A stretch of DNA of 18,540 nucleotides from a bacterium (GTDB lineage Bacteria; Vulcanimicrobiota; Xenobia; RGZZ01), in the NCBI GenBank assembly GCA_021782195.1, contig JAJXVI010000001.1, positions 1 through 18,540 of the forward strand, in the 5' to 3' direction. Below the pieces are notes generated by a model. The model was not told where the DNA came from, did no database searches, and saw only the letters and a program-made list of their open reading frames with translations. Shown here piece by piece: positions 14,213-18,540 of this stretch (the stretch's first letter is position 1; each line of letters starts with the position of its first letter). The translations under genes were made by a program, and so were the position numbers.

Positions 14213-14281
14213 ATGACGGATTTGCTTTTGTCCCTGTCCCTGTCCCTGTCCCTGTCCCTGGTCCGTGGGACGTACTCTTGA
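14213..14281 (+). CDS. Possible 22-codon leader peptide with Leu-Ser repeats, coupled to the next gene
   Basis: ATG 14213 opens a 22-residue frame: MTDLL, then alternating Leu-Ser encoded by the TCCCTG repeat, then VRGTYS. Its TGA (14279-14281) overlaps the TTG start of the methyltransferase-like gene by 4 bp (TTGA), the same style of overlap as at later junctions of the operon. A strong GGGAGGA lies directly before the ATG, rather close for that ATG; TTG 14222 in the same frame is at better spacing (10 nt). It may be a translated leader that feeds ribosomes to the weak TTG start. It may equally be chance; a database match is unlikely for such a short repeat peptide. Confidence 0.3.
   Translation: MTDLLLSLSLSLSLSLVRGTYS
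14231..14260. repeat. Hexamer microsatellite (TCCCTG)5
   Basis: Five perfect TCCCTG units lie 18 bp before the TTG start of the first methyltransferase-like gene. Six bases equal two codons, so copy-number change lengthens or shortens the leader frame (Leu-Ser) without breaking it. The complementary core CAGGGA also occurs in the 24-bp array at 12398-12517. Confidence 0.93.
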
Positions 14282-15360
14282 AGCGAATTCTGGCACCTTC
14301 TCTGCGCCTCGTCGTGTTGTGCGCGGGAATGCTTTTCTTTTTTCTGGCAGGTTGGGCGTCTCACCGATGGCTCGTGATGCGTTCCTACGCAATCTGGCCT
14401 GACGTGCGGGAACCGCTCTGTCACTACAACGATGGTCCACGTCCCCCTTCCGATGCGCTGCGGAGAGCGGCGATGCTTCTTCAGGAATATCTCGTTACCC
14501 AGAATACCGTGGCCCTTCAGCAAGCGCGTGCTCTTCTTGTTGAAGACGTGCCTCACGAGCCGGTGGGGACGGTTGCCAGTTGCCTTCTGTGGCTGTGCAG
14601 TGATTTCGGTGCTCCCCCCCAGATTCAAGCCGGGATGGCGGCCTCTCCGAACGCATCCAGGCTTCTCGCCTGGTTGAAAGGGCCGGGCCGTGTGCCCTTT
14701 CTGAAGGCGCTTGACGATATTGCGAGCAACCGACTCCCGGACACTGCGAGCATGGCTCACCGCTCCCTGGCCACGCTGGCGACGCGTGTCCTGGTCGGCT
14801 GCGATCCCATGCGCCGCACCTGGGATGCGGCCGACTCGGTTGTGGCTGGCTGTGGCGTGCACCCGGGGGACACGGTGGCTGTCCTCGGTGCGCGGAGCGG
14901 GTATTACACGTTGCGGCTCTCGCGCGTGGTTGGTCCGCAGGGGACTGTGCTTGCGCTCGGGTCCTGGCAGCCGGAACTCGGGTTCATCGATCAGGGGGCG
15001 CAGGCGCAGGGGCTCTTGAACGTGCATACGTTGCAGATGCACGCGAGGCACATTCCCCTGGCGCGTGCGAGTGTGGATTGCATTTTTTTCTACGGTCAGA
15101 TGAGCAGGATGTACCTCTCTGATTCCCCTGAGGATCTGGCAGGATGGGCGCGGGCTGTACATCGTGCGCTGCGCCCCAATGGCCGTCTTGTGATCGTGGA
15201 CGCGTTTCCGTCGGTCGCCGGTGTGCCACTTGCCGGTGGGTTTCGCCTGGCGCCGTCGGTCGTCCCCACCTATCTTGATCAGTACGGTTTTGTGCTGAAG
15301 GCATACTACCGATTCACCCCACAGCGTTACGAACTGTGTTTCTCGAAGGGGGCAGCCTGA
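14278..15360 (+). CDS. Membrane-anchored methyltransferase-like protein with degraded SAM motif
   Basis: A 360-residue protein from TTG 14278. The frame is open upstream but only through repeat-coded Val-Pro, and no ATG or GTG gives a better start. Residues about 8-26 (SLRLVVLCAGMLFFFLAGW) form a membrane anchor. An uncharacterised alpha-helical region (about 45-180) follows, then a Rossmann methyltransferase-like domain (about 190-355). Motif I reads VAVLGARSGYYTLRL (200-214): the acidic residue and GxG spacing of the usual hhDxGxGxG are altered, and the second acidic site is replaced (VLALGSW). SAM binding is therefore doubtful. It is a clear paralogue of the next gene, sharing PLxHYxxxP (47-55) and the same domain order. 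First structural gene of a coupled operon; possibly a pseudoenzyme partner. Confidence 0.78.
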   Translation: MKRILAPSLRLVVLCAGMLFFFLAGWASHRWLVMRSYAIWPDVREPLCHYNDGPRPPSDALRRAAMLLQEYLVTQNTVALQQARALLVEDVPHEPVGTVASCLLWLCSDFGAPPQIQAGMAASPNASRLLAWLKGPGRVPFLKALDDIASNRLPDTASMAHRSLATLATRVLVGCDPMRRTWDAADSVVAGCGVHPGDTVAVLGARSGYYTLRLSRVVGPQGTVLALGSWQPELGFIDQGAQAQGLLNVHTLQMHARHIPLARASVDCIFFYGQMSRMYLSDSPEDLAGWARAVHRALRPNGRLVIVDAFPSVAGVPLAGGFRLAPSVVPTYLDQYGFVLKAYYRFTPQRYELCFSKGAA

Positions 15361-17311: not shown

Positions 17312-17616
17312 AGTTGCTTTATCGTCTTGCCGTGGTTCTGCTCGTGGCAATTGTTGCCGTGTGGGTGTGGCACGGCTCTCGCTCTCAGAGGTCCCTCACT
17401 TCGACGCAGGTCTACCTTCAATTGATGTCGACGATCGACACCAACGGCGACCACCGCATTTCTCGTCGCGAGTGGTCGCAGTACAGCCACGATCCCGCTC
17501 CCTTCATCAAGTATGACACGAACGACGATGGGTATCTTGACGTCAAAGAGTTTGCGCGGATGTTTCGAGGTACTTCGCCATCGCTGCCGGTGGCAGTTCC
17601 CAGGGTGGGGATGTGA
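17308..17616 (+). CDS. Membrane-anchored EF-hand calcium-binding protein
   Basis: A 102-residue protein beginning at GTG 17308, which overlaps the previous stop by 4 bp (GTGA), with AAAGGA about 9 nt upstream. Residues 4-21 (LYRLAVVLLVAIVAVWVW) are a signal anchor. Two EF-hand loops follow: D44-T-N-G-D-H-R-I-S-R-R-E55 and D70-T-N-D-D-G-Y-L-D-V-K-E81. The second has canonical ligands at positions 1, 3, 5, 9 and 12 and glycine at 6; the first has a histidine at 6 and a serine at 9 and may bind weakly. Paired EF-hands on a short anchored protein suggest calcium sensing or buffering at the membrane surface. The neighbour downstream is a sulfatase-superfamily protein, a group that uses Ca2+, so a functional link is plausible but inferred. 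Confidence 0.9.
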   Translation: MKLLYRLAVVLLVAIVAVWVWHGSRSQRSLTSTQVYLQLMSTIDTNGDHRISRREWSQYSHDPAPFIKYDTNDDGYLDVKEFARMFRGTSPSLPVAVPRVGM

Positions 17617-18540
17617 ACGTGAGAAAGTGGGAATACTGGCTCGCGCCCGTCCTGCTGGTGATGCTGGTCTGTGCCGGCACGTATGGCTTGATGCACAGGA
17701 CTGCGGCGCAGTGGCGACCGCGTCTCGTCATCCTCATGGTCATCGACACCCTGCGGGCAGATCACCTGGGATGTTACGGATACTCCCGCGACACGTCCCC
17801 GAATATTGATCGGGTCGCGCGTGAGGGGACGCTCTTCGAGAACGTTTTCAGCCAGAGCAACACCTCGTTGTTTTCAAGTCTGTCGCTTATGACCGGGCGC
17901 TATCCGGAGCGGTTTGGTGCGCTTGACTACAGCACGTTTCACCTGCCGGACAGCGCCGAGACCATTGCGTCGGTGCTTCGCTCGTACGGGTTTCGCACCG
18001 GAGGTTTCGTGGCCGGCGGACACTGGAAGCACGTGTTCGGCCTCGGCAGGGGATTCGACGTCTACCAGGATTCGCACGACTTCGGTTCATTCCACGACAC
18101 TTTTCCGCTTGCCATGCAGTGGCTGGAGAACCTTCCCCGGCAGGCGCCCGCGTTCATGTTGCTGCACGGGTACGACCTCCACTCTCCCTACAAGAAGCCG
18201 CTCTTTTTCAGTCACCTTTATGACCGTGGCTATCGTGGCATTGCCAACGAGATTGTTCGCGTTCCCGACGGGGTCGACGACATCTATGGTGGTGACTACT
18301 TTATTGAACGGCCGGTACTCACGCGCCGAAACGGGACGCGCTGGTCGCACGGGCAACTGGTGATCTCGGCCTCCTACTACGACATACTGGCCCGCATGAA
18401 GCGCGACAATGCCCCGCACATTGCGCTTACGCCCGCAGACGTTCGGCACATTTCCGCGCTCTACGACGGTTGTATCCGCTATGCTGACGTCTACGTCGGA
18501 CTGTTGCTTGCGCGACTCCATAAACTTGGCCTCGACCGCC
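17613..18540 (+). CDS. Membrane-anchored sulfatase-superfamily protein, C-terminus beyond window
   Basis: From GTG 17613 (4-bp overlap GTGA with the EF-hand gene; GTG 17619 is an alternative) the frame is open to the window end, giving 309 residues. Residues 8-26 (YWLAPVLLVMLVCAGTYGL) form an anchor. The sulfatase/alkaline phosphatase superfamily core then appears: LVILMVIDTLRADHLGCYGY (38-57, metal-binding D45), TSPNIDRVAREGTLFENVF (61-79), a LMTGRYPERFG segment (92-102), and LLHGYDLHSPY (183-193) with H190. At the position of the formylglycine motif C/S-x-P-x-R the sequence reads S85-L-F-S-S, so proline and arginine are absent. A standard formylglycine sulfatase is unlikely; it may use Ser or Thr directly, as phosphotransferases of the superfamily do, or be inactive. 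The missing C-terminus prevents checking the remaining metal ligands. Confidence 0.88.
   Translation, partial: MNVRKWEYWLAPVLLVMLVCAGTYGLMHRTAAQWRPRLVILMVIDTLRADHLGCYGYSRDTSPNIDRVAREGTLFENVFSQSNTSLFSSLSLMTGRYPERFGALDYSTFHLPDSAETIASVLRSYGFRTGGFVAGGHWKHVFGLGRGFDVYQDSHDFGSFHDTFPLAMQWLENLPRQAPAFMLLHGYDLHSPYKKPLFFSHLYDRGYRGIANEIVRVPDGVDDIYGGDYFIERPVLTRRNGTRWSHGQLVISASYYDILARMKRDNAPHIALTPADVRHISALYDGCIRYADVYVGLLLARLHKLGLDR

What the first reader, a model, noticed from the sequence alone, without database searches (positions are those of the whole stretch)
14213..18540. Coupled membrane operon: two methyltransferase paralogues, repeat-linker protein, EF-hand protein and sulfatase-like protein
Each gene start overlaps the previous stop by 1-4 bp (TTGA, TGATG, ATGA, GTGA, GTGA). 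All five proteins carry a single N-terminal hydrophobic anchor. Such uniform coupling and topology suggest a stoichiometric membrane complex. I know of no described system combining a methyltransferase-like pair, a two-EF-hand protein and a sulfatase-superfamily protein. A Ca2+-responsive modifier of a surface lipid or glycan is one speculative reading.
Basis: partly seen in the sequence, partly recalled or inferred. Interest (0 to 1): 0.72.

Follow-up and report, generated by a model that had tools for sequence, protein, structure and literature searches.

The report
Membrane-anchored methyltransferase, EF-hand, sulfatase-fold operon
A poorly known bacterium carries a tightly packed set of genes for five proteins that are probably tethered to the outer face of its membrane; a related bacterium keeps the same five gene families together, but their job is unknown.

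Summary
Five genes (MT1 14278-15360, MT2 15360-16430, G3 16427-17311, EF-hand 17308-17616, sulfatase-fold 17613 to contig end) overlap by 1-4 bp and each begins with a hydrophobic segment. One other genus of the family (G002) keeps all five families on one contig, as two blocks on opposite strands (MT1-MT2; G3-EF-sulfatase) with the same kind of overlaps. Of 58 phylum genomes searched, G3 and MTs with this N-domain were found in these two only. All five strong EF-family hits (19 genomes searched) adjoin a sulfatase-fold gene. MT1 has a damaged SAM motif in both genera; MT2's is intact. The sulfatase-fold protein lacks CxPSR (Ser/Thr instead). None of 80 named loci with the nearest sulfatases has the EF-hand or G3. 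A stoichiometric complex and Ca2+ control are untested. Best reading: a lineage-specific, envelope-anchored module pairing an alkaline-phosphatase-superfamily ectoenzyme with an enzyme/pseudoenzyme methyltransferase pair. In passing: an apparently new thioredoxin-like selenoprotein family in G002 (12 genes, 4 in sister cassettes), whose SECIS-like hairpin covaries perfectly (72 of 72 cells paired).

The parts
14206..14281 (+). candidate leader: Shine-Dalgarno-like GGGAGG (14206-14211), 22-codon ORF 14213-14281 holding a 6-bp tandem repeat (14229-14260, 5.3 copies), its TGA overlapping MT1's TTG
   Evidence: sequence; tandem repeat. Spacing to ATG 14213 is only 1 nt, so the start could be TTG 14222, or the ORF may be untranslated. 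The 62 bases printed upstream of the G002 MT1 show no such repeat; the upstream gene there ends 12 nt before MT1.
14278..15360 (+). MT1: N-terminal anchor, an N-domain of about 155 residues, class I methyltransferase-like domain with damaged SAM motif (VLGARSG; beta-2 acid replaced, ALGSW)
   Evidence: Pfam; motif table; groups with G002 MT1, 97/97
15360..16430 (+). MT2: N-terminal anchor or signal peptide, same N-domain, class I methyltransferase-like domain with intact motif (VADVGCGSG ... VYAVETN)
   Evidence: Pfam; motif table; groups with G002 MT2, 93/94 (just under the tool's star); nearest solved chain 3dh0, E 1.3e-21 for the family profile
16427..17311 (+). G3: N-terminal tail, one hydrophobic segment (34-52), Pro/Gly-rich linker with a perfect 36-bp repeat (16707-16812, 2.9 copies), C-terminal region shared with G002
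   Evidence: found in 2 of 58 phylum genomes, G000 and G002
17308..17616 (+). EF-hand protein: hydrophobic segment 3-21 and two 12-residue Ca loops (DTNGDHRISRRE, DTNDDGYLDVKE)
   Evidence: Pfam EF-hand_1 6.1e-9; family alignment
17613..18540 (+). alkaline-phosphatase-superfamily (PF00884) ectodomain with a single hydrophobic segment; Ser85 at the nucleophile position (SLFSS instead of CxPSR); runs off the contig
   Evidence: Pfam 5.2e-23; 55% identical to the G002 homologue; profile alignment to 6hhm
13406..13900 (-). divergent neighbour: 4HBT thioesterase; not part of the module
   Evidence: Pfam PF03061 1.1e-10; the G002 locus has other genes beside it

Best explanation
The region is a real, lineage-specific gene module for a set of membrane-anchored proteins whose domains lie outside the cytoplasm. 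SHOWN: the five families, their tight overlaps, the N-terminal hydrophobic segments and their co-location in two genera. INFERRED: short basic N-termini followed at once by the hydrophobic core (four of five proteins; G3 has a longer tail) put the domains on the outer face of the membrane. There the single-anchor alkaline-phosphatase-superfamily protein (Ser/Thr nucleophile) hydrolyses or transfers a phospho- or sulfo-ester on an envelope lipid or glycan. Its constant neighbour, the EF-hand protein, binds Ca2+ and steadies or positions it. MT2 is the ligand-binding, possibly catalytic, methyltransferase-fold subunit, MT1 its pseudoenzyme partner, and G3 a stalk or spacer with a Pro/Gly repeat linker. 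That they act together is moderately likely; the chemistry is a guess.
For: All five families on G002:C40, with GTGA at MT1/MT2, G3/EF and EF/sulfatase. The MT N-domain profile matches six genes in the fetched contigs, the six at these two loci, and none of the other 18 of 24 MT-like genes. In the 58-genome search, matches starting in the first 140 residues of MT2 lie in G000 and G002, plus one stray in G050 (E 5.2e-4); the rest cover the MT domain. G3 in 2 of 58 genomes. EF profile, 19 genomes: 1 strong hit in G000 and 4 in G002, all 5 next to a sulfatase-fold gene; a rough chance for four of four in G002 is 1e-9 (assuming 16 sulfatase-fold genes among 5,700; the EF profile was built from members first met at such loci). 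Of 24 MT-like genes only the two MT1s lose the beta-2 acid, and both also have a damaged motif I. 22 of the 24 have an N-terminal hydrophobic segment (mean hydropathy 1.5 or more); one is fused to an FGE-type domain.
Against: Not conserved as one operon; absent from G001; only two loci known. The G002 sulfatase-fold homologue has GDLG where L033 and L034 paralogues have GDHG, and Glu for the first Asp, so it may be impaired; the window copy is cut before that site. Charge bias around the anchors of the window MT1 and MT2 is neutral (2/2 and 2/3), so their orientation is not shown. SAM is not known (recalled) to be available outside the cytoplasm. 14 of 24 sulfatase-fold gene calls on the fetched contigs of the three genomes have no EF or MT within 3 kb. 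Seven other class genomes have weaker EF-profile hits whose neighbours I did not examine.
Confidence: 0.4

Rival explanations
1. Loose neighbourhood: this lineage has expanded several families of anchored ectoproteins, and members land beside one another by duplication and rearrangement. The genes may be co-transcribed but act independently.
For: Large paralogue sets (23 sulfatase-profile match stretches in G002, 9 in G001, 7 in G000; 24 MT-like genes in the fetched contigs); combinations differ from site to site; G002:C40 has two extra MTs and a second sulfatase-fold gene.
Against: EF-sulfatase adjacency in 5 of 5 strong EF hits; MT N-domain and G3 found only at the two loci; the same GTGA junctions G3/EF and EF/sulfatase in two genera whose proteins are 29-55% identical.
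Confidence: 0.35
2. Degenerate ectodomains: most of these enzyme folds no longer catalyse and serve as binding, sensing or structural modules on the surface.
For: MT1 damaged in both genera; G002 sulfatase-fold homologue has Leu for the metal-ligand His; further paralogues with altered catalytic residues on C229 and C160 (read by eye).
Against: MT2 motif intact in both genera; motif I Asp-x-Gly kept in 20 of 24 MT-likes; L033 and L034 paralogues keep GDHGE.
Confidence: 0.15
3. The MT domains sit in the cytoplasm (N-out anchor) and methylate a lipid-linked precursor that the outside sulfatase-fold enzyme later trims.
For: Intact SAM motif in MT2; neutral charge bias at the window MT anchors.
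Against: Core starts at residue 4 or 7 after a basic N-terminus, as in signal peptides; two paralogues have N-in bias (+6 against +1 on C229, +4 against +1 on C160).
Confidence: 0.1

Closest known systems
Formylglycine sulfatases (PF00884; best solved match 6hhm)
   Same: fold profile and the N-terminal signature (RADHLGCYGY ... TGRYPE)
   Different: CxPSR absent: Ser (window) or Thr (G002) at the nucleophile position, Ser for the Arg; single membrane anchor
Phosphoethanolamine transferases EptA/MCR
   Same: membrane-bound alkaline-phosphatase-superfamily enzymes with a Thr nucleophile (recalled); weak profile similarity (NCBIfam MCR-6 7.8e-6, 24.9 bits)
   Different: one hydrophobic segment instead of a multi-TM membrane domain (recalled); far below the family cut-offs (500 to 1250 bits)
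Class I SAM methyltransferases (nearest solved chain 3dh0; arsenite-methyltransferase-like profiles)
   Same: motif I and beta-2 acid in MT2
   Different: N-terminal anchor plus an N-domain found only at these two loci; MT1 motif damaged
OvoA/EgtB-type FGE-domain proteins (only for paralogues in G001, not the window)
   Same: L050:1867-3246 has an FGE-type domain followed by an MT domain
   Different: anchored; similarity to EgtB and OvoA far below cut-off; no such domain in the window proteins

Membership tests
Formylglycine sulfatase | C/S-x-P/A-S-R nucleophile motif (recalled) | tested here: not met
   SLFSS in window, TLFSS in G002
Formylglycine sulfatase | sulfatase fold (PF00884 above gathering score) | tested here: met
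   82.2 bits against 25
Alkaline-phosphatase-superfamily phosphotransferase (EptA/MCR type) | multi-TM membrane domain before the catalytic domain (recalled) | tested here: not met
   one hydrophobic segment, Pfam Sulfatase match starts at residue 38
Alkaline-phosphatase-superfamily phosphotransferase (EptA/MCR type) | C-terminal metal ligands Asp-His (recalled) | tested here: inconclusive
   window copy cut by the contig end; G002 homologue has Asp-Leu
Class I SAM-dependent methyltransferase | motif I with its acid, and beta-2 acid, in MT2 | tested here: met
   VADVGCGSG, VYAVETN
Class I SAM-dependent methyltransferase | the same features in MT1 | tested here: not met
   VAVLGARSG, VLALGSW
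EF-hand protein | 12-residue loops with ligands at 1, 3, 5 and 12 (recalled) | tested here: met
   both loops in the window protein; by eye loop 2 is kept in 5 of 5 members and loop 1 in 3 of 5
LTXXQ/Spy-CpxP-like protein (considered for G3) | Pfam profile match | tested here: not met
   no family at E 0.1 or better for window G3, its G002 homologue or the L033 look-alike
Exported methyltransferase | domain outside the membrane | not testable with these tools
   only hydropathy and charge

The most novel reading that the evidence does not exclude
An enzyme/pseudoenzyme methyltransferase pair works outside the cytoplasmic membrane, so SAM or a SAM-like donor is supplied there, and acts together with a Ca2+-assisted phospho/sulfo-ester enzyme to remodel an envelope polymer; the wider set of cassettes, some with exported selenoproteins, is an extracytoplasmic modification system restricted to this bacterial family.
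Probability: 0.12. Interest if true: 0.82.

Novelty: new variant of a known kind. Interest (0 to 1): 0.52.

Why it matters
Methyltransferase folds with an intact SAM motif but an apparent export anchor raise the question of whether SAM chemistry happens outside the cytoplasm. Two genera keep a degenerate copy beside an intact one, which makes an enzyme/pseudoenzyme pair directly testable. An EF-hand gene that was always found beside a sulfatase-fold gene is a simple, testable Ca2+ link.

Tried and rejected
Structure models of MT2 (two-row alignment, pLDDT 38) and of the truncated sulfatase-fold protein (single sequence, pLDDT 34) were too poor, so no fold search was run. G3 against solved structures gave two weak hits to CagY/Cag7 chains (E 0.004 and 0.005), dismissed as chance. 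The genome-contig scan with the sulfatase pair kept the best 80 of 575 relatives, at 29-43% identity and from many phyla; in their fetched flanks (up to 10 kb) 0 of 80 have an EF-family, G3 or selenoprotein-family match and 1 has an MT, without a clear anchor, so I take these as ordinary sulfatase relatives. The idea that two split sulfatase-fold genes in G002 (L039, L040) are selenoproteins was dropped: their TGAs fall at different positions and I saw no common hairpin. My simple gene caller missed G3 in the window because an opposite-strand ORF outscored it, so G3 is missing from the window row; G3 was taken from the sequence itself. The first-start ORF 14110 for MT1 was rejected in favour of TTG 14278. 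Papers: a search for methyltransferase, sulfatase, EF-hand, operon and uncultured together found 0; one for periplasmic, extracytoplasmic, secreted or exported methyltransferase as phrases found 9, 8 listed, none on this subject by title (listing only); one search listed 8 of 752, none relevant by title. These searches do not prove absence from print.
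Full report
WHAT WAS CHECKED. The window is one whole contig of a fragmentary genome (G000:C365, 18540 b; 705 contigs, 61% complete). The first overlap joins MT1 to a 22-codon ORF (14213-14281), not a gene; that ORF contains a 6-bp tandem repeat and has GGGAGG just 1 nt before its ATG, so it is at most a candidate leader. The last gene is cut by the contig end. In 13300-18540 no sigma-70-like promoter was found (shuffles: mean 1.0) and 5 terminator-like sites against 5.5 in shuffles.

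PARTS. MT1 and MT2 each have an N-terminal hydrophobic segment, an N-domain of about 155 residues and a class I methyltransferase domain. In a table of the 24 MT-like genes called on the fetched contigs of G000, G001 and G002, the Asp-x-Gly of motif I is present in 20 and missing in 4 (window MT1, G002:C40 MT1, one on G002:C229, one on G001:C172); the acid at the end of beta-2 is missing in 2, the window MT1 and its G002 counterpart. 22 of the 24 have an N-terminal hydrophobic segment; one of the other two, L171, looks like an ordinary soluble protein. The tree groups the two MT1s (97/97) and the two MT2s (93/94, just below the tool's star); the window MT1 has a longer branch than its partner (1.24 against 0.57). 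G3 matches no profile; it has a tail, one hydrophobic segment, a Pro/Gly linker with a perfect 36-bp repeat, and a C-terminal part shared with G002. A protein of the same layout lies divergently beside the EF/sulfatase block on G002:C202 (L033:4503-5693), but at 27% identity in a gappy alignment this is only a resemblance, and the G3 search did not return it. The EF-hand protein has two loops. The sulfatase-fold protein aligns with 6hhm so that the Cys of CxPSR falls on Ser85 (window) or Thr (G002), Pro on Phe, Arg on Ser (read from the profile alignment); it therefore fails the test for a formylglycine sulfatase. In the G002 homologue the first metal Asp is Glu and the C-terminal Asp-His is Asp-Leu.

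THE SECOND LOCUS. G002, another genus of the same family, carries all five families on C40 (L022): MT1 8603-9679 and MT2 9676-10749 on one strand; sulfatase-fold 10765-12240, EF 12237-12539 and G3 12536-13186 on the other; then two more MTs, one on each strand, and a degenerate sulfatase-fold gene. MT1/MT2, G3/EF and EF/sulfatase overlap by GTGA there. Identities: MT1 35%, MT2 40% (local), sulfatase-fold 55%, EF 35%, G3 29%. So the families are held together, but not as one transcript. Upstream of MT1 in G002 lie two radical SAM genes on the same strand; the window has none there.

HOW WIDESPREAD. Over 58 genomes of the phylum (own included), MT2 matches that start in its first 140 residues occur in G000 and G002, save one stray match in G050 (E 5.2e-4, residues 30-176, in a 925-aa frame); G3 is in 2 of 58. 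The third family genome, G001 (93% complete), has neither, though it has other anchored MT-like genes. The EF profile was searched in 19 genomes: 1 strong hit in G000 and 4 in G002, weaker hits in 7 other genomes whose surroundings I did not examine. All five strong hits adjoin a sulfatase-fold gene. Of 24 sulfatase-fold gene calls on the fetched contigs of the three genomes, 10 have an EF or MT gene within 3 kb (9 of 16 in G002, 1 of 4 in G000, 0 of 4 in G001). Several contigs are short, two calls are pieces of genes split by TGA, and not every contig with a weak sulfatase match was fetched (G002:C135 was not). In 80 named loci carrying the nearest sulfatases, 0 have an EF-family or G3 gene and 1 has an MT in the fetched flanks, up to 10 kb.

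TOPOLOGY. The hydrophobic cores begin at residues 3-9 after a basic N-terminus in four of the five window proteins and at residue 34 in G3. Two paralogous MTs show an N-in bias (+6/+1, +4/+1); others in the same table, the window MTs included, are neutral or the reverse. I infer outside domains for all five, firmly for the sulfatase-fold protein (a class that acts outside the cytoplasm when membrane-bound; recalled), less so for the MTs.

LIKELY WORKING. See best explanation. The organisation is shown; lineage restriction is shown only within the genomes searched, since the large protein database could not be used; the outside location is inferred; joint action is plausible; the substrate is unknown.

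TAXONOMY (inference only). A same-phylum genome in the set, G025, is one contig listed at 3.5 Mb; Vulcanimicrobium alpinus WC8-2 (Eremiobacterota) has one chromosome of 3,508,363 bp (PMC9758169, passages seen).

SIDE FINDING. G002 has a family of anchored thioredoxin-like genes split by an in-frame TGA at one alignment column. One search (58 genomes) found matches in 3: 12 in G002, 4 stretches in G001, 2 in G007. I inspected 15 genes (12 in G002, 2 in G001, 1 in G007; the matches on G001:C332 and G007:C324 were not inspected): 14 have TGA there and one (G001, L164) TAA. Only 4 of the 12 G002 genes lie on contigs with sulfatase-fold or MT genes (3 on C160, 1 on C229); the other 8 do not. For 12 of the 15 (the TAA gene and L162 and L163, whose hairpin is shifted, left out), the 50 nt from the TGA align without gaps and form a 6-pair hairpin 17 nt after it: 72 of 72 cells paired, 4 of 6 pairs with changes on both sides (7 of 500 shuffles reach that), covariation score reached by 0 of 500 shuffles, all slid versions far lower. 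The structure was chosen on these sequences, which favours it in the slid control, and the columns also code for a conserved peptide. tRNA-Sec is over cut-off in 15 of 19 genomes, G000, G001 and G002 included (5 of 14 control genomes). SelB is over cut-off in 12 of 19, G001 and G002 included (2 of 14 controls), and G000 has a 119-residue SelB-like fragment near a contig end, under the cut-off as a fragment. One of three members scanned weakly matches the VPGUxxT thioredoxin-like selenoprotein profile (E 1.3e-4, 21.8 bits against a cut-off of 275), the other two match nothing; a 2026 review lists VPGUxxT (PMC13188914, passages seen), and the motif here differs. No member was found in G000.

Noticed in passing
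L036:971-2503, 6764-8182, 8179-9393; L035:2029-3405; L157:4349-5599; L158:2051-3613 and 5779-7002; L159:1584-3017; L160:195-1580; L161:5845-7131; L162:6705-8090; L163:9785-11098; L165:13899-14837; L167:2389-3690: Apparently new family of thioredoxin-like selenoproteins, most with an N-terminal hydrophobic segment: in-frame TGA at one column in 14 of 15 genes inspected, followed by a covarying SECIS-like hairpin in the 12 aligned; tRNA-Sec and SelB present. Three of these genes sit in one cassette (L036) with MT, EF and sulfatase-fold genes, one (L035) with MT and sulfatase-fold genes.
   Followed up: partly
L164:2297-3598: A G001 member of the same family has TAA instead of TGA at the selenocysteine position; decay, sequencing error or something else.
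   Followed up: no
L050:1867-3246; L168:13072-14514; L169:6702-8204: Anchored fusions of a formylglycine-generating-enzyme-type domain with an MT-like domain in G001; the FGE profile match was tested for L050 only (1.7e-40), the other two rest on resemblance of the printed sequence.
   Followed up: partly
L039:4532-5770; L040:4703-5611: Two sulfatase-fold genes in G002 split by TGA at different positions (in one, where paralogues have Trp); decayed genes or errors rather than selenoproteins.
   Followed up: partly
window 12398-12520: 24-bp tandem repeat, 5.1 copies, from the end of an ABC ATPase gene (profile DrrA-like) to the start of its permease; ORFs coding similar simple repeats occur on related contigs (L164, L170).
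   Followed up: no
window 14206-14281: Candidate leader with a 6-bp repeat whose copy number would change peptide length but not frame.
   Followed up: no
L022:5827-8590: Two radical SAM genes (one with a HemN_C domain) directly upstream of MT1 on the same strand in G002.
   Followed up: partly
window 8579-11551: Eco57I-type restriction-modification methylase, 990 aa in the longest frame.
   Followed up: no
L163:3000-9723: Array of genes with N-terminal hydrophobic segments in G002 beside a selenoprotein-family gene; of five scanned, one has an AhpC/TSA domain, one a GDSL-lipase domain, one a weak sub-cut-off match, two nothing.
   Followed up: no
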